Positions 4,997 through 24,644 of a stretch of DNA of 24,644 nt are shown piece by piece. Position 1 is the stretch's first letter; each line of letters opens with the position of its first letter. Origin of the DNA: a virus; IMG/VR virus record IMGVR_UViG_3300037537_000260, positions 1 to 24,644 of that record, one strand, 5' to 3'. The notes below the pieces were generated by a model that worked only from the letters and a program-made list of their open reading frames with translations, had not been told where the DNA came from and did not search any database. Made by a program: the position numbers and the translations under genes.

Positions 4997-5692
4997 ATGG
5001 ATATACAAAATAATTTAGAGGCTGTCTTTTATAGTAAGGAATTCTTACATGAATTTGGTACTATAAGAACACTGAAGGATGCAATGGCATTAGTGGGTGG
5101 ATGTTCTAACCCAAAGAAAATGCCGGGATTGTCTTATGGATTGCCTACTGATATGTGCAATACAGGTATGAAGTTGAAAGTTATACCGGGTACTGTATGT
5201 TATGGGTGTTATGCTGATAAAGGACACTACAAACAGTATGAAGTTGCTATCAAGAAGGCTCAATACAGGCGATTAAAGAGCATTTCTAACCCTCGATGGA
5301 TAGAGGCTATGATTTATATATTAAATCACCAGAAATCGATTGTGGATACAGGTGTTTTTAGATGGCATGATAGTGGGGATATACAAAGTGTAGAGCATTT
5401 GGATAAGATAGTAAGGATTGCTGTCGCTACACCACATGTAAAGCACTGGCTACCTACTAAGGAAAGTAATTGGATACAGAAGTATGTAAATCCTATCCCG
5501 AAAAACTTGGTGATAAGGCTTAGTGGTACTTTTGTGGATGGTAAAGCACCAACAAGCTACCCCAACACAAGCACTGTCGTTACTAATGAGGATGATGCAA
5601 CTTGCAGAGCCTTTGAAAATGGTGGTGAATGTGGTGAGTGTAGACAATGTTGGGATGCTGGGATAAGAAATATAAGTTATGTAAACCATTAA
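4997..5692 (+). CDS. Cys-rich phage protein with HDSGD, PTKE and CRQCW motifs (GP88-like)
   Basis: This 231-residue protein is encoded behind a strong AAAGGAGG site. Visible motifs are Cys36 and Cys54, CYGC (68-71), RWHDSGDIQS (122-131), WLPTKE (151-156), IRLSG (173-177), Cys203 and CGECRQCW (212-219). The invariant-looking HDSGDI, PTKE, RLSG and clustered Cys match a family I know from many phages, including mycobacteriophage-type gp88 proteins; I am unsure of the exact family name and know no proven activity. The Cys spacing suggests a zinc or iron-sulfur site, and His-Asp-Ser-Gly plus Pro-Thr-Lys-Glu look like catalytic loops, so it may be an enzyme. It is the first gene after the promoter at 4941 and heads a run of small early-type genes. 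Confidence 0.8.
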   Translation: MDIQNNLEAVFYSKEFLHEFGTIRTLKDAMALVGGCSNPKKMPGLSYGLPTDMCNTGMKLKVIPGTVCYGCYADKGHYKQYEVAIKKAQYRRLKSISNPRWIEAMIYILNHQKSIVDTGVFRWHDSGDIQSVEHLDKIVRIAVATPHVKHWLPTKESNWIQKYVNPIPKNLVIRLSGTFVDGKAPTSYPNTSTVVTNEDDATCRAFENGGECGECRQCWDAGIRNISYVNH

Positions 5693-12871: not shown

Positions 12872-13001
12872 ACCACACCCTATAGTTAATAAACTTATGC
12901 ACTCTGTTAGAAATCACAGGATGTGGTCACCTAAAGTATTTTTAAACAAAAAGAAAGAACAAAAGAAGAGAGGAGAACATATTGAACAAACTACCGAATG
13001 A
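12861..13001 (+). CDS. Small basic protein overlapping the reductase start (46 aa)
   Basis: An ATG at 12861 overlaps the end of the 67-residue gene by 11 bases and opens 46 residues: MKTKPHPIVNKLMHSVRNHR, then MWSPKVFLNKKKEQKKRG and an acidic end. The frame runs 20 bases into the reductase gene, passing through its AGGAGA site. It is strongly basic, so nucleic-acid binding is possible. The ribosome site is weak. Coding is favoured by gap filling and tight overlap, but is not certain. Confidence 0.5.
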   Translation: MKTKPHPIVNKLMHSVRNHRMWSPKVFLNKKKEQKKRGEHIEQTTE

Positions 13002-14958
13002 TTATCAAAACTTCATTGCTCTGAGTAGGTATGCAAGATGGCTACCAGCTGAGAAGAGAAGAGAGAATTGGGAAGAAACTGTAGGTCGTTACTTTGATTT
13101 TATGGATGAACACCTACAAGATAACACTAGCTACACACTCACATCCAAAACCAGAAAAGAATTAGAGAAAGCAGTCATTAACTTAGAAGTAATGCCTAGT
13201 ATGAGGGCGTTAATGACAGCAGGCAAGGCATTAAAGGACAACAACATAGCAGGGTACAACTGTGCCTACCTTAGTGTTGACCATCCTAAAGCATTTGATG
13301 AGTGTCTGTATGTTCTAATGCACGGTACAGGTGTAGGCTTTAGTGTTGAGAGACAGCACGTTAACAAACTACCAGAAGTACCAGATGAATTTGAAGATGT
13401 ATCAGTAGCATTTACTATTACTGTAACTGATTCAAAAGAAGGCTGGCAGACAGCGTTCCGTAAATTAATAACTTACTTATATATAGGACAAATTCCAGAT
13501 TGGGATGTTTCTCATATAAGACCTAAAGGTTCTCGACTCAATACATTTGGTGGCAGAGCTAGTGGACCAGAGCCTTTAGTTGATTTGTTTATGTTTACAG
13601 TGCAGTTATTTAAAGAAGCAGCAGGTCGTAAACTTACAAGTTATGAATGTCATAGACTGATGTGTAAGATTGCAGAGATTGTAGTAGTTGGTGGAGTCAG
13701 GCGTAGTGCTTTGATTTCTCTAAGTAATTTGACAGATGAACGTATGCGTAATGCCAAGACCGGGCAGTGGTGGATAGACACACCTGAGATGGCACTAGCA
13801 AACAACAGCGTATGCTATACAGAGAAACCTGATATGGGTATCTTTATGAAAGAGTGGCTGTCACTGTATGAGTCCAAGTCTGGTGAGCGTGGTATATTCA
13901 ATAGAGAGGCAGCAATTAAACAGGTAGCCAAGTCGGGCAGACGTGATACAGACCATGAGTTTGGATGCAACCCTTGTTCAGAGATTATACTAAGAGACGG
14001 ACAGTTCTGTAATCTGACAGAGGTGGTGATTAGAGCAGAGGATACACACAAGGATATATTAAGAAAGGTAAGGTTGGCTACTATACTTGGTACATTCCAA
14101 GCATCGCTAACAAATCTCAGAAGACTTAGGAAGAAGTGGACAATCAATACAGAAGAGGAAGCACTGTTAGGTGTGAGCCTTACTGGTATTATGGACAACC
14201 ATTTTATGAATGGTAGTTCTAAGGAACGTGTGTCGGAGTGGCATGGTGGTATAAACCTTCCTGATTTCCTTTTGAAATTAAAGAATGAAGCAATCAAAGT
14301 TAATAAGGAATGGTCCTCACTATTAGGAATCAATCCATCTGCATCCATTACAGCTATCAAACCTAGTGGTACTGTTAGTCAGTTGGTGGACTCGGCATCT
14401 GGTATTCATCCGAGACACAACGACTACTACCTACGCAGGGTAAGAGCAGATGTTAAAGACCCAATCGCACAGCTTATGAAAGATGAGGGTGTGCCTTGTG
14501 AGCCTGATGTTATGAAGCCAGAGAGTGTTGAAGTATTCACATTCCCTATGAAAGCACCAGAGGATGCAGTGTTGAGAGATGATAGGACAGCAATAGAACA
14601 ACTAGAACTGTGGCTGATATACCAAAGGTATTACTGTGAGCACAAGCCGAGCATTACTGTAACTGTAAGAGAACACGAGTGGCTGGAAGTAGGTGCGTGG
14701 GTATACAAACATTTTGATGAGGTGAGTGGTGTTAGTTTCTTACCACACTCAGACCACAATTATCAGCAAGCACCCTATGAGGACTGTACAGAGGAAGTTT
14801 ATCTCGAAGCACTGGGGGGTATGCCTGAATCAGTAAACTGGTCTAGAATAGAAGAATACGAGCTTACAGACACTACTAAGGGTATGAAGACCCTAGCTTG
14901 TACTGGAAGTGTATGTGAAATGGTAGATTTAATTGATGAAGAGGAGGAGAGAGAATGA
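12982..14958 (+). CDS. nrdJ: Class II (B12-dependent) ribonucleotide reductase
   Basis: This enzyme converts ribonucleotides (probably triphosphates) to deoxynucleotides using adenosylcobalamin and needs no oxygen or small subunit. The residues known from the monomeric Lactobacillus leichmannii enzyme are all visible: GYNCAY (Cys94) and QFCNL (Cys343) as the active-site disulfide pair, CNPCSEI with Asn330, thiyl Cys332 and Glu334, GGVRRSAL (237-244), and a C-terminal shuttle pair CTGSVC (Cys640, Cys645). Cys332 and Cys343 are 11 apart, as in that enzyme. At 658 residues it is somewhat shorter than the 739 of L. leichmannii. The start is TTG 12982, set by AGGAGA at 12971-12976. It overlaps the next gene by four bases. 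It supplies nucleotides for phage replication and implies that the infected cell has cobalamin. Confidence 0.95.
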   Translation: MNKLPNDYQNFIALSRYARWLPAEKRRENWEETVGRYFDFMDEHLQDNTSYTLTSKTRKELEKAVINLEVMPSMRALMTAGKALKDNNIAGYNCAYLSVDHPKAFDECLYVLMHGTGVGFSVERQHVNKLPEVPDEFEDVSVAFTITVTDSKEGWQTAFRKLITYLYIGQIPDWDVSHIRPKGSRLNTFGGRASGPEPLVDLFMFTVQLFKEAAGRKLTSYECHRLMCKIAEIVVVGGVRRSALISLSNLTDERMRNAKTGQWWIDTPEMALANNSVCYTEKPDMGIFMKEWLSLYESKSGERGIFNREAAIKQVAKSGRRDTDHEFGCNPCSEIILRDGQFCNLTEVVIRAEDTHKDILRKVRLATILGTFQASLTNLRRLRKKWTINTEEEALLGVSLTGIMDNHFMNGSSKERVSEWHGGINLPDFLLKLKNEAIKVNKEWSSLLGINPSASITAIKPSGTVSQLVDSASGIHPRHNDYYLRRVRADVKDPIAQLMKDEGVPCEPDVMKPESVEVFTFPMKAPEDAVLRDDRTAIEQLELWLIYQRYYCEHKPSITVTVREHEWLEVGAWVYKHFDEVSGVSFLPHSDHNYQQAPYEDCTEEVYLEALGGMPESVNWSRIEEYELTDTTKGMKTLACTGSVCEMVDLIDEEEERE

Positions 14959-16429: not shown

Positions 16430-16823
16430 TAAGAGTAGTAAAATCAAAGAGTTACGTAAGTTTGATATAGATTTAGAATTCGGTAAGAGCTGGGAAAAGC
16501 ACATAGATGATGTATTTTCTGGTGTTACCAAGTGTGAGGTTAAAACAGAGAGGGATAAGTGGGCGAGTACAGGTAACATCTGTATCGAGATTGAAAGCTA
16601 TGGTAAGCCATCAGGGTTGACCAGCACAGAGGCTGAGGTCTGGGTACACAATCTAGTTAAAGATGGTGAGTTGTGTGCTAGTCTCATGTTCAACACAAAC
16701 AAACTACGTAAGGTGTTGAAGAAGATGAAACCTTATACAGTTATGGGTGGTGACAACGATGCATCCAAGTTATACTTAGTTAATATAGCTAAGTTACTTA
16801 CTGCTGTTAGTCAATCTCAATAG
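16419..16823 (+). CDS. Probable PD-(D/E)XK-type phage nuclease, TTG start (134 aa)
   Basis: A TTG at 16419 within the resolvase end, behind AGAGG, gives 134 residues. The pattern EFGKSWEKHIDDVF (20-33), CEVKTERDKWASTGNICIEI (39-58) and GKPSGLTSTEAEVWVH (62-77) contains the E-x-K core (Glu40, Lys42), a following TGN..IE (Glu57) and the PSG-T motif typical of small phage nucleases of the restriction-endonuclease-like fold. Substrate is unknown. Adjacent to a RusA gene, it may act on branched or host DNA. It is the last rightward gene, overlapping the end of the leftward gene at 16807 by 17 bases, with no obvious terminator in between. Confidence 0.72.
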   Translation: MSLNKSSKIKELRKFDIDLEFGKSWEKHIDDVFSGVTKCEVKTERDKWASTGNICIEIESYGKPSGLTSTEAEVWVHNLVKDGELCASLMFNTNKLRKVLKKMKPYTVMGGDNDASKLYLVNIAKLLTAVSQSQ

Positions 16824-17097
16824 AACCCTGTTCAAACAACTCTCTATCTTCAGAGGACAATTCTTCATATTGATTCAATGGCTTGCCAGTTCTTATGGCA
16901 TTTCTCACTGCTTCTAAATTATTGTCCTCATCATCGCTACCGAAACCAAAGAACTTAGGCTCTACACCAAATACTTCTTTGTGTTTTTTACTGAGCTTTC
17001 CTTCAATGGTGTTGTCAAGTTCGTTTTGAATACGCCTTTCTTCTAATCTTTCCTTTCTTAATGTACTGCTCATTCCCTTCCAAATATATTTGCTCAT
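16807..17097 (-). CDS. Hypothetical protein, last gene of the leftward virion block (96 aa)
   Basis: A 96-residue hydrophilic protein begins with a basic, helical stretch (MSSTLRKERLEERRIQNELD) and ends acidic (LSSEDRELFEQGSIEID). A second candidate start is Met9. It overlaps the metalloprotease-type gene by four bases (ATGA), so it shares its transcript and probably its timing, which suggests a virion or assembly role. A central FGFGSDDEDN segment looks flexible. No family is recognised. Confidence 0.75.
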   Translation of the reverse strand: MSKYIWKGMSSTLRKERLEERRIQNELDNTIEGKLSKKHKEVFGVEPKFFGFGSDDEDNNLEAVRNAIRTGKPLNQYEELSSEDRELFEQGSIEID

Positions 17098-18701
17098 AAC
17101 ATACTACTCCTTACCTTCATACCTAATTCTCTAATTGCCTGAGATGAATCCGTAAACCTAGGCTCTACGGTTGTATCTTTGTACTCTTCCATTATACCCT
17201 CAAATTCACGTGTTAGGTTAGGAAGTCTCTCTTTCATCCTATTCCAATCAGCACGGTCTACGTTTGCCCAAGCTGCTCCTAGTTGAGCAAAAGTTTCACT
17301 AAGCCTTCTTCTTATAAGTTCCTCTGGACCGTAATCTTTTAAAGCAAATCTACTATTGAAATAGTCTTTACCATGTCCAGTAAGCCCACCACCATTACGA
17401 GCCTTACCACCAGTCATGGCGTCTAGTATGTCCATATATCCACTAAGCTCTGAACGCCTGTCCCCAAGTGCTTTCATTTCTTTCTTAACTTGGTAAAACA
17501 ATACACTTCTAGCAGCGAGTACCTTGTTCATTTCAATAGCATCAGTCATCCTTTTGTTTGCTGACTCAATGTAGTCCATCATTTTATTTCTACTAGGTAG
17601 ATTGTTAGCAATCCTATTTGTTACTGAACTATCAAATATAAATTGATTCATAGTGCTATGAACAGAACCGTCATCTGTCATCCACTCAGTGCCATATAGA
17701 TGTTTAAGTGTTTCACTCCTCTTGTTCGGTATATAAATCTCCTTAAGTATCCTTGACATCTCATCTTGTGGATTAAAGGCGTATGATGCACCAGCTTCGG
17801 CAAGCATCTCCTGATGTTCCTTAATCTCTCTAACTATTCTTTCATATGTTCTAGGATGGTCAAGCATGTACTCATAGAAAATTATTTGTGCTAAAGCATT
17901 GTCGTGAGCAGCACGAGTAGTATTTTTATTATGTTCTTCAAATTGGTTTTCATTCAGTGGACCACCATACTTATCTGCTGTTATACCAAAAGCCCTTGCA
18001 TCTTCAAAAAATGCTTCCTCGAATGTTGGATGCCCTGCACTTAGTGCAACCGGAGCACCATCCCTTCTTGTCCTGTTGTATCTTTGTCTTCCCAGAGTGT
18101 AATCTACCCAATGGAATGTCTCATGCAGATGTGTATGAAGAATACTTCCAAGAAGAGGTCTGCGGTTGCCTAATAGCTTAGGGTGATTCCTTAATTTAAT
18201 TACATCCGTAATAGGAGCATATGATGCTGTAAGATTTGACATGTCATCAAACCATACAACTGCAGTAGGTCTGCCCCACTTCAGTAGCGTATCAAGCACA
18301 CCTTCCCTTGTACCACCATACAAGAACCAATAGTACCTTCCATCACTCATAGGTTCAGGCTTTCCACTTTTTCCTACAAAAGCCTCTTGCATTAGAGGTC
18401 TTATGTCGTTACCAAGTGCATTCAAGGATGCGTGGTCGATGTCTCCTTGCATCAACTCCACGTCAATGTTCATCATCCTTTGGTACTCGTCTTGTATTCT
18501 CTCTGACTCTGATTTCTTTTTTTTATGCTCCTTTAGTGCCTTGCCTTTTAATGGCTGTGCCTTTTTAATTGGAGGAGCATAGTCTTTCTTATTAGATTCA
18601 CTAGCATTAAACTCAGCCATTATTTTCATTTCGAGCGGATAGTCTTTTACTTGCTTATTGACTGCATCAAATCCCGGTACTATGTTAGTTCCACATCCCA
18701 T
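17094..18701 (-). CDS. Probable virion protein with HExxH zinc-protease motif (535 aa)
   Basis: After a disordered, lysine-rich N-terminus (residues 35-70), the central part carries LHTHLHETFHWVDYTLG, whose HETFH (193-197) is the zincin motif HExxH. FEEAFFEDARAFG (227-239) lies about 30 residues later and would give the third, glutamate ligand (Glu228, 229 or 233) of a gluzincin-type site. The rest is helical and charged with no other known domain. The gene lies directly after the 1099-residue virion-type gene (one-base TGATG overlap) and before the last leftward gene, so it is probably an internal or ejected virion protein. Possible tasks are processing of virion proteins, or cutting envelope or host proteins at infection. 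The motif is clear; activity is not proven. Confidence 0.75.
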   Translation of the reverse strand: MGCGTNIVPGFDAVNKQVKDYPLEMKIMAEFNASESNKKDYAPPIKKAQPLKGKALKEHKKKKSESERIQDEYQRMMNIDVELMQGDIDHASLNALGNDIRPLMQEAFVGKSGKPEPMSDGRYYWFLYGGTREGVLDTLLKWGRPTAVVWFDDMSNLTASYAPITDVIKLRNHPKLLGNRRPLLGSILHTHLHETFHWVDYTLGRQRYNRTRRDGAPVALSAGHPTFEEAFFEDARAFGITADKYGGPLNENQFEEHNKNTTRAAHDNALAQIIFYEYMLDHPRTYERIVREIKEHQEMLAEAGASYAFNPQDEMSRILKEIYIPNKRSETLKHLYGTEWMTDDGSVHSTMNQFIFDSSVTNRIANNLPSRNKMMDYIESANKRMTDAIEMNKVLAARSVLFYQVKKEMKALGDRRSELSGYMDILDAMTGGKARNGGGLTGHGKDYFNSRFALKDYGPEELIRRRLSETFAQLGAAWANVDRADWNRMKERLPNLTREFEGIMEEYKDTTVEPRFTDSSQAIRELGMKVRSSML

Positions 18702-21700
18702 CAGTCATCCTCTACATTAAATAAACTTTGCGTTGGTTTGAATCCAATACCTGCTGCACCTAACGCAGCATCAACACTTTCAGCAAACCAGTCAGTCATA
18801 TTGCCAAATGCGGATATGTCTTGCTCAGTGTACAGTGGTGATATAAATTCTTCCCATGCTCTGTCAACAAATCCTGCACCCACACCTATCATAGATGTAG
18901 TTGCACCCTCTTGGAATCTTCCAGCACCACCAAGTAAACCAACAGCACCAGTTAAACCTGCTCTGTCTAGTGTCTCTCTCATGCCCGGTGCTTCAAAATC
19001 AGTCTGTCTTATAGCAGCTTTCATAGTCTCACCTATGTGAACTAAAGCATATGCCATTGCTAGTCCCTGTACTACACCAATAGCAGCACCAAAGTCTGGA
19101 CTACATTGCTTAGGGTTTAGTTTTCTCAACAGTCTCTTGACTACTGTATTACCAAACACAACAGGGAATGTCTTAAGCTGTGCTATGATTGCAAACCTAG
19201 GGTCTGACATCCACAGTGGTTTGTTGATGGCTTTAGGATGTACAACTACATCATCAACCACCTTATGCAACCAAGGAACAAGGACATCTCTTACTGTTTT
19301 TCCATTAGGCATCTTAGTATTTAATATACCCTCATTCGTAATGTCAACTCTCACCTTGCCTTGTTCATTTGTAAAGGCTTTGGATATGAATTGAAACTCA
19401 TCATTGCTAACACCATTCTCTTTTAGTTCATTAACTAATCTTCTTCTTTCAATGTCAGACAGGTCACCTCTTATAATACTGTTAGCTCTTCTGTTGATGT
19501 TAGTCATCATTGCTTGAGCTGCCCAGTTTCTATTAAAGTTTGTCCATTGTGTAAGAAAACCACCAGCGAATGTTCTGAAGTACATGTTCACTACCATGTT
19601 ATGGTCAGTAGAAAATATCTGGTCTAGTCTTTCATTAACTCTAGGGTCTAGGTTGAATCCTAGGGTAGCCATAGCTTGTGCACCCTCACTCGGCTCTCTA
19701 TACTTACCTGATACACCACGATGGATGCCTTTCAAGGTATAGGCAAGAGCTTTAGGTAATGTCCTTAACATATTACCAAAGCCAGCACGCTCACCAATCC
19801 AAGCAAGCTCGGTGAAGGATGAAATGGTAGCAAGACCGAGGTGTGTTACAGCACCGACAGTAGTTGCCATCTTAGAAACTGCGGACCAGTTTTTGTTTGT
19901 GTTTCTTTTGTATGTATTATGTGCTGCATCATACACATCATACACTTTATCACGCTGTTCTTTTGAAAGGACAGGAGTACCATCCTCTTTCTTAGCCTCT
20001 CTAAGAACTTTTAAATCTTCTCTTAACTTTGAAGCATTCTCACCAAATGCACTAACAGATGCAACACGAGTGGCTGCTTTCTGCATATAGCCTGTGAGTA
20101 TCCTCTCAATATTCTGTTCCCTAAAGTTGAGTCCTTCTTTTGCTGACTCTTCATCTAAGTATTTCCAAGCAGCAGCTCTGCTCTTTTCCCATCCTCTTCT
20201 GCCTTGGCCTTTGAACTCCGATTTATTCAATGCCTCTTCTTCTCTGGCAGTTAAGATGTCTGGGTCAATATTATTTATAATGTCATCAGCAATCTGTTCA
20301 GCACCTTTACGTGCTTTCAGACCATCCTTTGCTGCGACACCTTCTCTTGTAATTACATGAACCTTTGGATTCTCTTTGTTAGCTCTAACACTAGAAGCTA
20401 TCAATGCTTTAATGAATCCTTCTCTGTTATTCTTTACAGCCTCAGCACTGATTGGGTTAGTTAAATAGTTTTCAATGTAACCAATGTCTAATCCAGCAGC
20501 AGTTAAGTCTTTGAACACAACATCACGCTGTGCTTTTATTTGTGCAAGGTCACTAAGTCCTTCAGGATTAGACTTGCTCTTTGGCTGTTTGACATTAAAC
20601 TCAGCTATGAATTCTTTAGGTGGTTTGGCTGTTATTTTCTCACCCTTAAGTGATTGTATAATATACTTACTAATTTCAGGGTTGATGTCTTGGCCTATGA
20701 ATCCAATAAACCTTTTCTTGTTTGCATATTTATTTAGTACATTTATTATAGGCTTTAAGTATTGACCAGTCTTAGTTTCTTTTATACTAAAGAAGTTTTC
20801 TTGTACTTGTGTCTCACCACTAGCTGTACCAGTAGGAGCAAATCTTTGATAAGCATTATTTGCAGCATGGAATTCCGCACCAGTCTTAGCCTCGTTTCTA
20901 ATCTTAATTAAATCACTGAGAGGTTTGAATGCTATTCCTTTTACTGCTGACTTAGCTGCTTCTTTGAAGTCAACACCTGTTACTTTCTTAGCCAGTTGAT
21001 TTCCTTGCTCGGCTAACTTTCTAATAGGTGTGGTAAGCTCTGGTATATCAATAAGGTCGGCTTCTGTTGAGCTTGTTGGACTCTCACCCTCCATCACTTG
21101 ACGATTGAATCCTTTAGCTAGTCTGCGAGCTGTACTTATATCTCTGTTCTGTTCTCTTGCTACACCAACAGCACCCGGAGCACCTATACCACCAACAACA
21201 GGACCAGCAATAACAGCCTCTTCAAGTATGTCTTGCATTCCTTCTGATGTACCAAGCCTACCGGGAGTAGCACTTGTAGCTATTTGAATAGCTTTCTGTG
21301 AAGCCTCAGTACCCATCTCAATACCGATTAGCTTGCCTAAATGAACAGAGCCTTTACTAAGTTGTTGTCTTAGTCCTTGTCTGTTTGTTTTTACTAGTTT
21401 TTGTAGTGATTTTCTGGTGGCATCAAGACCACCCTTTCCGAAAGTCTTTGTTATCATTCGGGATGTGGCAGTTGCGCCTTTGATTGGAGCAATCATGTCT
21501 AAGTATGTAACACCTGATGCTACCAATGCAGCCTTTGCTTTTTCACTAGCAGTAAGCTCCCTGCCAACAGCATCCTCATGCTCCTGTAGTGTGTCTGCAA
21601 AGTTGGCATTATATGTTAAAGCATATGTTGCCCAGTTGATTGTTTTACCTGCAATTTTAGCTGCCCAATGTGGCATTGCCTGCATTGTATTACCAATAGC

Positions 21701-22000
21701 AAACCCCAACATAGGGGCTATAGTATTCATAGAGTTAAGTGCAGCTTTCTCTTTCCACCACTCAAAAGGCTTTTCACTTTGAAGTAATCTTTCTGGATAT
21801 TTAGGTTGAAATTGTGACAGTATTCCTTCTTGTCTTCTTCCAAACTCATCAATAACACCAGTGTCTATACCAAAGATGTCACCTAGAGCACCAGCACCCT
21901 GAGCCTGCATAGAACCATACATAGGCAATGATGCCTGACCAGCACTAATAACGCCTCTGTTCTCTTCCTCTTCTTCAGGATTAAATAAACTTAATGCCAT
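18701..22000 (-). CDS. Very large internal-virion-type protein (1099 aa)
   Basis: This is the largest gene in the window. The N-terminus is acidic (NPEEEEENRG). Hydrophobic segments occur near residues 90-110 (APMLGFAIGNTMQAM), 155-175, in the middle (VGAVTHLGLATISSFTELAW) and at 968-990 (FGAAIGVVQGLAMAYALVHI). Charged helical stretches fill the spaces. Size, scattered membrane-active segments and late position match the ejected internal proteins of T7-like phages (gp15/gp16 class), which form a channel across the cell envelope. I see no lytic transglycosylase motif. The segment around AAGLDIGYIENYLTNPIS recalls domains of large multi-domain (polyvalent) phage proteins. The ATG at 22000 has almost no ribosome site and follows the previous stop by three bases, so translation is probably coupled. 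Confidence 0.8.
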   Translation of the reverse strand: MALSLFNPEEEEENRGVISAGQASLPMYGSMQAQGAGALGDIFGIDTGVIDEFGRRQEGILSQFQPKYPERLLQSEKPFEWWKEKAALNSMNTIAPMLGFAIGNTMQAMPHWAAKIAGKTINWATYALTYNANFADTLQEHEDAVGRELTASEKAKAALVASGVTYLDMIAPIKGATATSRMITKTFGKGGLDATRKSLQKLVKTNRQGLRQQLSKGSVHLGKLIGIEMGTEASQKAIQIATSATPGRLGTSEGMQDILEEAVIAGPVVGGIGAPGAVGVAREQNRDISTARRLAKGFNRQVMEGESPTSSTEADLIDIPELTTPIRKLAEQGNQLAKKVTGVDFKEAAKSAVKGIAFKPLSDLIKIRNEAKTGAEFHAANNAYQRFAPTGTASGETQVQENFFSIKETKTGQYLKPIINVLNKYANKKRFIGFIGQDINPEISKYIIQSLKGEKITAKPPKEFIAEFNVKQPKSKSNPEGLSDLAQIKAQRDVVFKDLTAAGLDIGYIENYLTNPISAEAVKNNREGFIKALIASSVRANKENPKVHVITREGVAAKDGLKARKGAEQIADDIINNIDPDILTAREEEALNKSEFKGQGRRGWEKSRAAAWKYLDEESAKEGLNFREQNIERILTGYMQKAATRVASVSAFGENASKLREDLKVLREAKKEDGTPVLSKEQRDKVYDVYDAAHNTYKRNTNKNWSAVSKMATTVGAVTHLGLATISSFTELAWIGERAGFGNMLRTLPKALAYTLKGIHRGVSGKYREPSEGAQAMATLGFNLDPRVNERLDQIFSTDHNMVVNMYFRTFAGGFLTQWTNFNRNWAAQAMMTNINRRANSIIRGDLSDIERRRLVNELKENGVSNDEFQFISKAFTNEQGKVRVDITNEGILNTKMPNGKTVRDVLVPWLHKVVDDVVVHPKAINKPLWMSDPRFAIIAQLKTFPVVFGNTVVKRLLRKLNPKQCSPDFGAAIGVVQGLAMAYALVHIGETMKAAIRQTDFEAPGMRETLDRAGLTGAVGLLGGAGRFQEGATTSMIGVGAGFVDRAWEEFISPLYTEQDISAFGNMTDWFAESVDAALGAAGIGFKPTQSLFNVEDD

Positions 22001-22003
22001 AAT

Positions 22004-23206
22004 TTATAGGTATCTGTCTGGATGTTCTTTTAACAAAGCCTCAGCAATTTCTTCCAGATTTCTAGTAGGGTATCTAGCCTTCTCATCTGTAACATCTCTT
22101 ATGAATTTTTCCTTTAGTGCATCTCTATCCTTACCACCCCACCAATCTGTGCCAAACTTTTCCTCAAACCATTCTCCTAGGCTCGTTTCTACATTTTTAT
22201 AGCTCCACTTGTAGGAGTCTGGCTTGTCTGTTGCTGCTGCTATGTTCTTTCCATGTGCTATTTCATTAGCTGCCCATAGTTCAGCAGGTGCTGTAGAGTC
22301 CTTTCTTCCTTTAGGTGTCTTACCATAGTAATCCATTAGTTGTCCTAGTCTCATAAGTCTAGTGTCTGTTGGCAATCCACTCATGCTCTGATGCCACCAC
22401 TTAGGGTCTTTCATATTAGAACCTAGTCTCTGCATTGCATTTGGTTCAGGAGCAGGTCCTCTTCCAGCCCTAGCTTCTCTACCACCCTTATAAGTAGGTG
22501 ATGAAGGGTCAGTGTCTGCCTTAGAAACAGGTGCGTCACCACCAAATTGATTCATAAGTGCTTGTATACCAGTAGCACCGGGTATAGCAACACCAGCACC
22601 AATCTTCCACTTAGACCAGTCTCTTGCAGTTACTGGTATTGGATTTCCTTTCGGGTCTAGCTTAGGGTTTGTCCCTACTCTAACTCTTTGAGTTGAGTTT
22701 ACACCTTTGCCACCATTCCAAGTTTGTGGATTAATTTTCTTTCCTCTAAATTCCCACTGCTTAAGTTTAGTATTCCAATTAGGTCTAACATTTTTATATA
22801 TTGGTTCACCCGGCACATTCTTTTGAGAGCCATCCTTAGTGTATTGCTTTTTATTACTCTTGAATAGCTTGTCCATTAGCTTAGAATCTTTGAGTCTTGT
22901 ACCCATGTTTTTCATACTCTGCCACACAGCATTTTTACTTCCCGGATTTCTGCCACCACCTAATACACCAGCTGCTATTATACCTGCATCAACACCCCAT
23001 TCTGGCATCCAGTCTGGCTTATTCATTAGAGGTTGTCTATTCATCATACCTTCTATTGAAGTCTCTTGATTTATTTTAGCAATGTTTTCATCACTCATCT
23101 GGTCACGACCAAACCATCCTGTTGGTTCACGCCAAGTGCTACCCATAGGGCATTGTCCTTGTGCTCCCGGAACTGGTTGTCCATTAGTATTATTTACGCA
23201 AGGCAT
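22004..23206 (-). CDS. Probable internal virion protein (400 aa)
   Basis: A 400-residue protein starts behind AAAGGAG at an ATG at 23206. The N-terminus has two Cys and Gly-Pro turns (MPCVNNTNGQPVPG, QCPMGSTW). Then come a short hydrophobic segment (AGIIAAGVLGGG), a basic Lys-, Asn- and Gly-rich centre, a second hydrophobic segment (IGAGVAIPGATGIQALM) and a helical C-terminal part containing SGLPTDTRLMRLGQLMDYYG and KTPKGRKDS. I recall LPTD.RL.R.G.LMDYYGKTPKGR from internal virion proteins of marine podoviruses, which fits the next gene being a giant ejected protein. It has no enzyme motif. Likely packed inside the head or in the tail-tip region. Confidence 0.75.
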   Translation of the reverse strand: MPCVNNTNGQPVPGAQGQCPMGSTWREPTGWFGRDQMSDENIAKINQETSIEGMMNRQPLMNKPDWMPEWGVDAGIIAAGVLGGGRNPGSKNAVWQSMKNMGTRLKDSKLMDKLFKSNKKQYTKDGSQKNVPGEPIYKNVRPNWNTKLKQWEFRGKKINPQTWNGGKGVNSTQRVRVGTNPKLDPKGNPIPVTARDWSKWKIGAGVAIPGATGIQALMNQFGGDAPVSKADTDPSSPTYKGGREARAGRGPAPEPNAMQRLGSNMKDPKWWHQSMSGLPTDTRLMRLGQLMDYYGKTPKGRKDSTAPAELWAANEIAHGKNIAAATDKPDSYKWSYKNVETSLGEWFEEKFGTDWWGGKDRDALKEKFIRDVTDEKARYPTRNLEEIAEALLKEHPDRYL

Positions 23207-23234: not shown

Positions 23235-24644
23235 TTACCATCTCCCAGCAGCATAGTTTGGTGTCCAATTATATGCTGGTCTTGAAACTGGATTAGAGGT
23301 AGGTCTGTTAGGTGGTCCTCCCGGTGCTGCATATACTGAAGCAACAGGTGCTGGTTGTGGTTTAAATATACTAGGTACATTAACAGGCGTATTATATGCT
23401 TGTGCTGCTGCTTGCTTTGCTGCTAAGTTTTTCATTGCTGTAATTCTAGGGTGTTCTGCTACTGGTTGAACAGCTTGTTGCTGTAGAAGTGAGTTAGCAA
23501 CTATCTGGTCTATTGCACTAGAACTTCCCGGAGCAGAATTATAGTCTGTACTCAGACCACCAGCCATCTTCTCCATCAATATATTTAAAGAGTCCGCACT
23601 TCCTTGTTCAGTAAGTCTAGGTAGTTGGCTGTGCACTAGGTCTATATTATTTGGCAATACCACCTCAGCAGTAGGCTCTGGTGGATTTTCCCATATCCTA
23701 GAATCACCCCATCCCGGACTTGTGCCACTTAGGGCAGCATTTATCTGACCCAGCTGTGGTCCAGTTTCTATTCTGCTAGAATATGATGGAGCAGTATATA
23801 CTGGAGGATGTCTTCCCTGTAGAGGTGTGTCTTGAATACCCAAGTATCCAGTACCTGCCATATTCTTAAGTGCCTCTTTCTGTAGTTCACCATAGAGAAA
23901 TTGTCCCTGTTCATCTCCACTTTCCCATGCATCCATATCAGCCCTTGCTATAGGAGGTGTAGGCATACCACTAGGTACTGGCTTTGGTCTCTCTAAGTTT
24001 ACAAATATAGCATTGTTCAGAATCTCTTGGTACTCTTCATCTGAAAAGCCAGTTGTTTTTATTGGTACATCATCTAGAAACTCTATAGGGTCTTCTTTTG
24101 CTGCAAAATATTCGTCAGTGTCTTCTACAGTAGATGATTCCCATTGTTTTGTGATTGGTACATCTGGTATATATTCTTTATCAGTTGTAGTTACTAAATT
24201 CATATTTGAACCATCAGCATAACCAGCAGGCATAGTAGGTGGGTAAATTGTATTTGATTGTACATCATTTATTTCTGGCACAGTTCTTGGGTCTACATAT
24301 ATACCACTATATGGCTGTGTCTCTTCAAAAGGATTTCTATTTAATCCTTTACCCTCATCTGGAGGATTGAATATGCTGTTTGCAGTTTCAAAGTTTGCTT
24401 GGTTAGTTGGTGCTATTGTAGCTCCAATTTTATTTCCAGCAGCCTGTGTCCAATCACTACCAGCTATTGCTTCAAATCCTGTATGCGGAGCAGTAAAAGT
24501 TTCTCCTGTCTTTGTATTGACCCAAGGAATTATGGCTTTGCCACCACCACCTGAATTAATTAGTCCTTCTGGAGTACCTTCTGCTTCATTGATATATGAG
24601 TTTAACAGGTCAGGGTTTATACCTGAGTTGACATAATTAGAATC
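23235..24644 (-). CDS. Proline-rich virion-type protein, 5' end outside the window (at least 469 aa)
   Basis: The frame ending at 23235 stays open without a stop all the way to the right edge, giving 469 visible residues. A GTG at 24281 is therefore probably internal rather than the start. The edge part (DSNYVNSGINPDLLNSYINE, then GGGGKAIIPWVNTKTGETF and NPFEETQPYSG) continues smoothly into PEINDVQSN. The protein is rich in Pro, Ala, Gln, Ser and Thr, acidic in the middle and low-complexity near the end (SIFKPQPAPVASVYAAPGGP, PNRPTSNPVSRP). It has no Cys or membrane segment. It resembles extended virion proteins that thread through a tail or line an internal core. It precedes two other internal-virion-type genes, 28 bases before the next start. 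Confidence 0.78.
   Translation of the reverse strand, partial: DSNYVNSGINPDLLNSYINEAEGTPEGLINSGGGGKAIIPWVNTKTGETFTAPHTGFEAIAGSDWTQAAGNKIGATIAPTNQANFETANSIFNPPDEGKGLNRNPFEETQPYSGIYVDPRTVPEINDVQSNTIYPPTMPAGYADGSNMNLVTTTDKEYIPDVPITKQWESSTVEDTDEYFAAKEDPIEFLDDVPIKTTGFSDEEYQEILNNAIFVNLERPKPVPSGMPTPPIARADMDAWESGDEQGQFLYGELQKEALKNMAGTGYLGIQDTPLQGRHPPVYTAPSYSSRIETGPQLGQINAALSGTSPGWGDSRIWENPPEPTAEVVLPNNIDLVHSQLPRLTEQGSADSLNILMEKMAGGLSTDYNSAPGSSSAIDQIVANSLLQQQAVQPVAEHPRITAMKNLAAKQAAAQAYNTPVNVPSIFKPQPAPVASVYAAPGGPPNRPTSNPVSRPAYNWTPNYAAGRW

What the first reader, a model, noticed from the sequence alone, without database searches (positions are those of the whole stretch)
17094..18701. Zinc-protease motif in a virion-block protein
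HETFH with a Glu-rich helix about 30 residues later is a plausible active site in a protein encoded directly after a giant ejected-type protein. A protease delivered with phage DNA or acting in head maturation would be unusual for a T7-like phage, whose internal proteins usually carry transglycosylase rather than protease activity.
Basis: partly seen in the sequence, partly recalled or inferred. Interest (0 to 1): 0.65.

Follow-up and report, generated by a model that had tools for sequence, protein, structure and literature searches.

The report
Swappable tagged protease cargo of phages
The protein looks like a real zinc-protease attached to a short conserved leader that related phages fuse, at the same genome spot, to other enzymes or to nothing, which suggests interchangeable cargo loaded into the virus particle and injected into the bacterium.

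Summary
HETFH (residues 193-197, minus strand) is real, next to the giant virion gene, and conserved in every zincin-bearing relative found, so it is more than chance (3% in shuffles). The invariant Glu is E469, about 270 residues later, in a [S/A]E[TA]FA[QE]L helix after an invariant GHG. This is a zincin with a long insert.

The larger finding is the architecture. The gene after the giant protein begins with a conserved leader (~30-40 aa, M[AG]CGT[NE]IVPG[FY]...). In relatives the leader is fused to unrelated C-terminal modules: zincin, ADP-ribosyltransferase, methyltransferase-like, ParB-like, others. It also occurs alone as a 43-47 aa lysine-rich protein. Phages whose giants are 91-93% identical carry different cargo. 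A pattern scan found 18 matches, 17 at this locus.

A small gene behind the cargo (16807-17097, minus) occurs only behind zincin cargo: a candidate cognate partner.

Best reading: the leader is a virion-loading/ejection tag, in form like T4's capsid targeting sequence or MuF toxins, and the zincin is an exchangeable injected effector. Virion location, proteolysis and the partner's role are inferred. Structure predictions failed (pLDDT 34-40). The T7-like label is not supported.

The parts
17094..18701 (-). Cargo gene, 535 aa: conserved N-terminal tag plus C-terminal zincin-like metallopeptidase with a long insert
   Evidence: Open frame; relatives L001, L006, L007, L075, L005
18606..18701 (-). 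N-terminal tag (residues 1-32, MGCGTNIVPGFDAVNKQVKDYPLEMKIMAEFN), shared with relatives whose C-terminal parts are unrelated
   Evidence: 17 of 18 pattern matches in viral contigs start the gene after the giant; codons vary synonymously
18111..18125 (-). HETFH, predicted zinc ligands H193 and H197 and general base E194
   Evidence: Conserved as HET[FW]H or HEYGH in all zincin-bearing relatives
18000..18023 (-).
   Evidence: FRWAFFKD, FKWAFFKD and FRTAFFKD in relatives
17370..17378 (-). GHG (residues 442-444), invariant in all zincin-bearing relatives including compact L005; possible accessory active-site His
17280..17300 (-). SETFAQL helix (residues 468-474); E469 (17295-17297) is the predicted third zinc ligand
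   Evidence: E invariant in window, L001, L006, L007, L075, L074 and L005; region matches C-terminus of phrog_4728
16807..17097 (-). Small gene, 96 aa, 4-base overlap with the cargo gene; candidate cognate partner (inhibitor, substrate or co-effector) of the zincin
   Evidence: Homologs only behind zincin cargo
18701..22000 (-). Giant virion protein gene, 1099 aa, immediately upstream; C-terminal half related to LUZ24/tf-like 'phage particle proteins'
   Evidence: phrog_6958 E 4e-28; tblastn to 123 phage records

Best explanation
The gene encodes a two-part virion cargo protein. Part 1 is a conserved N-terminal leader of about 30-40 residues that most likely recruits whatever is fused to it into the particle, probably by docking on the giant ejection-type protein made by the gene just before it (their coding regions overlap), and so sends it into the cell with the DNA. 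Part 2 is an exchangeable effector, here a zincin-type zinc metallopeptidase: H193 and H197 plus E469 bind zinc, E194 activates water, and about 270 residues lie between the HExxH helix and the E469 helix. After injection the protease would cut a host protein, perhaps of a defence system, or process the injected proteins themselves. The 96-aa gene behind it travels with the zincin and is most likely its partner, for example an inhibitor that keeps the protease quiet in the producing cell. Shown here: the conserved motif, the conserved leader, cargo swapping on near-identical giants, and the partner's co-occurrence. Inferred: zinc binding and proteolysis, presence in the virion, injection, targets, and the partner's role.
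For: HExxH and E469 are invariant across zincin-bearing relatives down to ~31% identity. hhalign pairs the E469 region with compact relative L005 (probability 97.7, E 1.5e-12). The C-terminal region matches phrog_4728 'head morphogenesis' in the window protein (E 2.9e-5), L005 (1.3e-6), L006, L007, L074 and L075 (L001 only in the per-genome search). Weak MPTase-PolyVal matches cover the HExxH region (best E 0.0097). A tag pattern scan of 2.9 million viral contigs gave 18 matches, 17 directly after the giant gene. The same tag carries ART-PolyVal (E 1.3e-6), methyltransferase-like and ParB-like modules or stands alone (43-47 aa, K-rich). Giants of L016, L017 and L018 are 91-93% identical with different cargo. 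The window's nearest giant apart from L001 is L020, which carries a methyltransferase-like cargo and no partner gene. The partner gene lies behind every zincin cargo whose downstream DNA is visible and behind no other. In LUZ24 the gene directly after the giant's homolog, gp49, is a virion protein by mass spectrometry and is missing from relative tf (PMC3517423), although it is not homologous. [quoted passage not shown]
Against: No experiment places any tagged protein in a virion. Both AlphaFold2 models are low-confidence and Foldseek found nothing, so the fold is unproven. No Pfam or NCBIfam family is reached above its cut-off by the window protein. The tag could instead be a small late protein with its own function, onto which domains have fused. 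The zincin-bearing phages are related to one another, so the partner's co-occurrence is not fully independent, although L020 lies within the same clade and lacks both.
Confidence: 0.6

Rival explanations
1. Assembly-stage protease: the zincin acts in the producing cell or head, processing itself or the giant protein during maturation, as proposed for P1 DdrB.
For: Gene lies in the late block next to the giant. P1 DdrB is cleaved before packaging and carries a C-terminal zincin (PMC5512222). The basic stretch after the tag could hold a processing site.
Against: Phages with 60-80% identical giants carry no protease at this locus, only other enzymes or the bare tag, so giant maturation does not need it.
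Confidence: 0.2
2. Inactive zincin: a binding domain that kept the metal site but is not a protease, used as a scaffold or as a decoy for host factors.
For: No activity data. Phage N4 virion RNA polymerase carries an HExxH region that is needed for encapsidation and is packaged unprocessed (PMC5512222).
Against: H, E, H and E469 are all kept in distant relatives (31% identity), including the catalytic E194, which a purely structural site would not need.
Confidence: 0.1
3. The tag is not a delivery signal but an independent 45-aa late protein (for example a DNA-binding or giant-stabilising peptide); fused domains are passengers that act in the producing cell late in infection.
For: Stand-alone 43-47-aa versions with lysine-rich tails exist (L017, L021, L028, L034, L035, L037).
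Against: Stand-alone forms fit delivery too: lysines of T4 internal proteins contact packaged DNA (PMC3012670). The cargo list (zincin, ART, ParB-like, methyltransferase-like) overlaps that of known injected polyvalent proteins.
Confidence: 0.2
4. The 96-aa neighbour is not a partner of the protease but an unrelated late gene inherited with the clade. (Concerns the neighbour only; compatible with any of the above.)
For: Zincin-bearing phages form a related group apart from L020.
Against: L020 branches inside that group, has another cargo and lacks the gene; the gene was not found behind any other cargo.
Confidence: 0.3

Closest known systems
Zincin-like metallopeptidases of polyvalent proteins (MPTase-PolyVal, PF18818; Iyer et al. 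2017, PMC5512222)
   Same: HExxH helix, later helix with a Glu ligand, variable insert between them, an Asp three residues after HExxH (D200), and the same companion domain types (ART, ParB, methylase) in the family of loci.
   Different: Score below Pfam's cut-off (best E 0.0097 in a relative, none in the window protein). Domains are swapped between phages behind one short tag rather than strung together in one polypeptide.
MuF polymorphic toxins of temperate phages (Jamet et al. 2017, PMC5576092)
   Same: Constant N-terminal virion part, variable C-terminal enzyme (20% metallopeptidases, also ADP-ribosyltransferases), small gene often following. The window's C-terminus matches the C-terminal end of phrog_4728, a MuF-type head-morphogenesis family (TP901-1 ORF33 matches its positions 5-360).
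   Different: No MuF domain; the constant part is a 30-40-aa tag at the end of the late block of a podovirus-like phage, not next to the portal gene; no sign of lysogeny was sought.
T4 internal proteins with capsid targeting sequence (IPI, IPII, IPIII, Alt)
   Same: Short conserved N-terminal tag on otherwise unrelated, fast-changing injected proteins (PMC3012670).
   Different: No sequence similarity assessed or expected; cleavage of the tag by a prohead protease not tested; one cargo gene per phage at a fixed site after the giant.
LUZ24 gp49 / tf_50 / KIT05_22 (genes after the giant in LUZ24-like phages)
   Same: Same position after a related giant particle protein; LUZ24 gp49 is a virion protein and this position varies between relatives.
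   Different: Sequences show no resemblance to the tag or the zincin.

Membership tests
Zincin metallopeptidase (gluzincin-like) | HExxH motif conserved in relatives | tested here: met
   HETFH, HETWH or HEYGH in all zincin-bearing relatives
Zincin metallopeptidase (gluzincin-like) | Third ligand Glu on a downstream helix, conserved | tested here: met
Zincin metallopeptidase (gluzincin-like) | Zincin fold | tested here: inconclusive
   AlphaFold2 pLDDT 34 and 40; L005 model shows strands, then the HExxH helix, then a later helix with the Glu, but Foldseek found no match
Zincin metallopeptidase (gluzincin-like) | Zinc-dependent proteolysis | not testable with these tools
   Needs biochemistry
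MPTase-PolyVal (PF18818) | Score above the curated Pfam cut-off | tested here: not met
   No match for the window protein; best relative E 0.0097
MuF polymorphic toxins | N-terminal MuF domain | tested here: not met
   No Phage_Mu_F match in Pfam scans
MuF polymorphic toxins | Constant N-terminus with variable C-terminal enzyme domains | tested here: met
   (with a different N-terminal part)
MuF polymorphic toxins | Small putative immunity gene after the toxin gene | tested here: inconclusive
   96-aa gene follows and tracks the zincin; immunity function untested
T4-type CTS internal proteins | Short N-terminal tag shared by otherwise unrelated proteins | tested here: met
T4-type CTS internal proteins | Tag needed for packaging and cleaved by the prohead protease | not testable with these tools
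   Needs virion proteomics and fusions
T7-like phage (Autographiviridae) | Single-subunit RNA polymerase | tested here: inconclusive
   PF00940 found in none of 7 records, but the control genomes did not ring either; terminase and giant point to HTVC010P-type and LUZ24-like phages

The most novel reading that the evidence does not exclude
A previously undescribed podovirus-like delivery system: a ~40-aa N-terminal tag, which also exists as a free lysine-rich 45-aa protein, loads a phage-specific exchangeable effector (protease, ADP-ribosyltransferase, methyltransferase-like or ParB-like protein) into the particle next to the giant ejection protein; protease cargo comes with its own dedicated partner gene.
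Probability: 0.5. Interest if true: 0.78.

Novelty: new variant of a known kind. Interest (0 to 1): 0.62.

Why it matters
If the tag is a loading signal, a 45-aa sequence marks which protein each of these phages injects. That makes injected effectors findable by a simple pattern search in unannotated viral DNA, gives a set of candidate early anti-host or anti-defence enzymes, and offers a short portable tag for putting proteins into virions. It also extends the T4-CTS and MuF principle to small podovirus-like phages related to HTVC010P and LUZ24.

Tried and rejected
Third ligand in the FEEAFFED helix: rejected, not conserved. Structure: AlphaFold2 on the window zincin with 4 sequences and on the compact L005 zincin with 5 sequences, both unusable; Foldseek of the latter gave noise. 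Known-structure searches gave nothing credible. Relatives in annotated phages: none for the protein, the tag or two relatives' zincins. Relatives in 84,980 prokaryote genomes: none. TipAS match (E 0.1): rejected as chance, below cut-off and not shared by relatives. A full-length MuF protein carrying the same C-terminal zincin as phrog_4728 was sought: TP901-1 ORF33 covers only the MuF half; the Latilactobacillus phage TMW 1.46 P1 protein has an HELGH zincin, but of a different kind with no detectable similarity. MAFFT could not place L005's HEYGH opposite HETFH, so that pairing rests on reading the sequences. A search for the divergent tag form gave nothing. The single-subunit RNA polymerase test was silent in the controls too.

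Full report
What is there. Window 17094-18701, minus strand, is a 535-aa gene whose ATG overlaps the stop codon of the 1099-aa gene 18701-22000. HETFH sits at residues 193-197 (window 18111-18125). Shuffling the protein's own residues gives an HExxH in 3.2% of trials, so the motif alone is weak evidence and conservation decides.

Conservation. One close relative exists in viral contigs (L001, 76% identical, HETFH kept). Searching with the giant instead of the protease opened up the family: the gene behind the giant in L006 and L007 carries HETWH and in L005 HEYGH, and a later scan with the small downstream gene added L075 (HETWH) and the C-terminal part L074. In the alignment A7 of five sequences (30-75% identical to the window) H193, E194, T195, H197, W198, D200, Y201, the GHG at 442-444 and E469 are invariant (residue numbers follow from the fragment starting at residue 105).

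Third ligand. E469 is kept as SETFAQL, AETFAQL, AEAFAEL or METAANL. hhalign pairs the GHG-ETFA region of the window family with compact L005 (probability 97.7, E 1.5e-12), where only about 130 residues separate HEYGH from METAANL. The published description of polyvalent-protein zincins (HExxH helix, second helix with a Glu ligand, variable inserts between the two, in one group an Asp three residues after HExxH; PMC5512222) fits this layout, including D200. The same C-terminal region matches the end of phrog_4728 'head morphogenesis', whose front half is the MuF-type protein of TP901-1. I did not find a single protein joining the two, so the MuF link is inferred. Fold evidence is missing: both AlphaFold2 models were poor for lack of sequences, and Foldseek was uninformative.

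The conserved leader. The genes behind the giant in the related contigs start with a common leader, typically M[AGS]C[GP]T[NES][IT]VPG[FYL] (L023, L025 and L028 more divergent) plus a short K-rich, helix-like stretch, and then diverge completely. Modules seen: zincin (window, L001; with an extra ~300-aa domain in L005, L006, L007); ADP-ribosyltransferase (L015, L024, L027; ART-PolyVal E 1.3e-6, just under Pfam's cut-off); methyltransferase-like (L020; weak Methyltransf_23, E 0.05); ParB-like (L016; weak ParB_N, E 0.1); a longer multidomain protein in L023 that looks acetyltransferase-like by eye only; several unknowns; and no cargo at all in L017, L021, L028, L034, L035 and L037, where the leader ends in a lysine-rich tail after 43-47 residues. 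A DNA pattern for the tag, run over all IMG/VR contigs, matched 18 stretches; 17 start the gene after the giant (16 with the giant's end visible, L039 with the leader at the contig edge) and one (L040) is a chance match in a short frame. The tag is conserved as protein: its codons also vary at synonymous positions.

Cargo is swapped. Giants of L016 (ParB-like), L017 (tag only) and L018 (unknown; its tag gene is frameshifted) are 91-93% identical. Giants of L005 and L006 are 86% identical and their cargo N-terminal 311 residues 90% identical, yet their zincins align at only 33% over 132 residues. On a giant tree the window's nearest neighbour apart from L001 is L020, with a methyltransferase-like cargo, and the tag-only form needs three changes.

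A partner gene. The 96-aa gene 16807-17097 (minus) overlaps the cargo gene by 4 bases. Homologs (89 aa in L007, 78 aa in L005, 85% identical in L001, also L074, L075 and the start of one at the contig end of L006) are found behind zincin cargo only. Behind other cargo or the bare tag the convergent early genes begin at once. L077 has the gene but its upstream DNA is not held. L020, inside the zincin clade, lacks both zincin and partner, which weakens simple inheritance as the cause. MuF toxin genes are followed by a small gene in 89% of cases (PMC5576092), so an inhibitor is a natural guess, but it is a guess.

Virion link. The giant's C-terminal half is related to 'phage particle proteins' of LUZ24-like phages. 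In LUZ24 the gene right after that giant, gp49, is a particle protein found by mass spectrometry and is missing from phage tf (PMC3517423); it shows no resemblance to the tagged proteins. This shows that the position can encode a virion protein, not that this one does.

How it most likely works. The leader docks the cargo on the giant or in the core during assembly, the cargo leaves with the DNA, and the effector acts at once in the new host: here by zinc-dependent cleavage of a host or co-injected protein. T4 does the same in form with its internal proteins, which share only a capsid targeting sequence (PMC3012670). My probabilities: zincin metallopeptidase about 0.85; tag-directed virion cargo about 0.6; partner functionally tied to the protease about 0.65; host-directed rather than self-processing about 0.6.

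Setting. The phage is not clearly T7-like. It has a family-A polymerase, a primase-helicase and a B12-type ribonucleotide reductase, a terminase closest to HTVC010P-type pelagiphages and Methylophilales phage Venkman, and a LUZ24-like giant. The record is a 24.6-kb fragment, and the host is unknown.

Noticed in passing
L005:9318-10300 and L006:9309-10300: An extra ~300-aa domain between tag and zincin is 90% identical in L005 and L006/L007 and recurs in L023 ('...GFFYDK..F.PV.SA..VLQVG.L.MA..V.Y...'); no family matched above cut-off.
   Followed up: partly
L017, L021, L028, L034, L035, L037: Tag-only versions end in lysine-rich tails (such as SKTKKKKK, KTKRKRRNNIK), suggesting DNA contact inside the head.
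   Followed up: partly
L018 / L043:4534: The tag gene is frameshifted within the leader although its giant is 93% identical to L016's; sequencing error or decay.
   Followed up: no
window 12982-14958 (+): B12-dependent (class II) ribonucleotide reductase-like gene, listed with a TTG start.
   Followed up: no
window 4997-5692 (+): Gene product 88 family (PF17338, E 1.7e-24), a phage protein of unknown function with many cysteines.
   Followed up: no
L064:1501-3036: Latilactobacillus phage TMW 1.46 P1 MuF-type head protein carries its own C-terminal HELGH zincin-like motif, unrelated in sequence to the window's.
   Followed up: partly
window 22004-23206 and 23235-24644 (-): Two further proteins upstream of the giant match no family; likely virion proteins of this group.
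   Followed up: no
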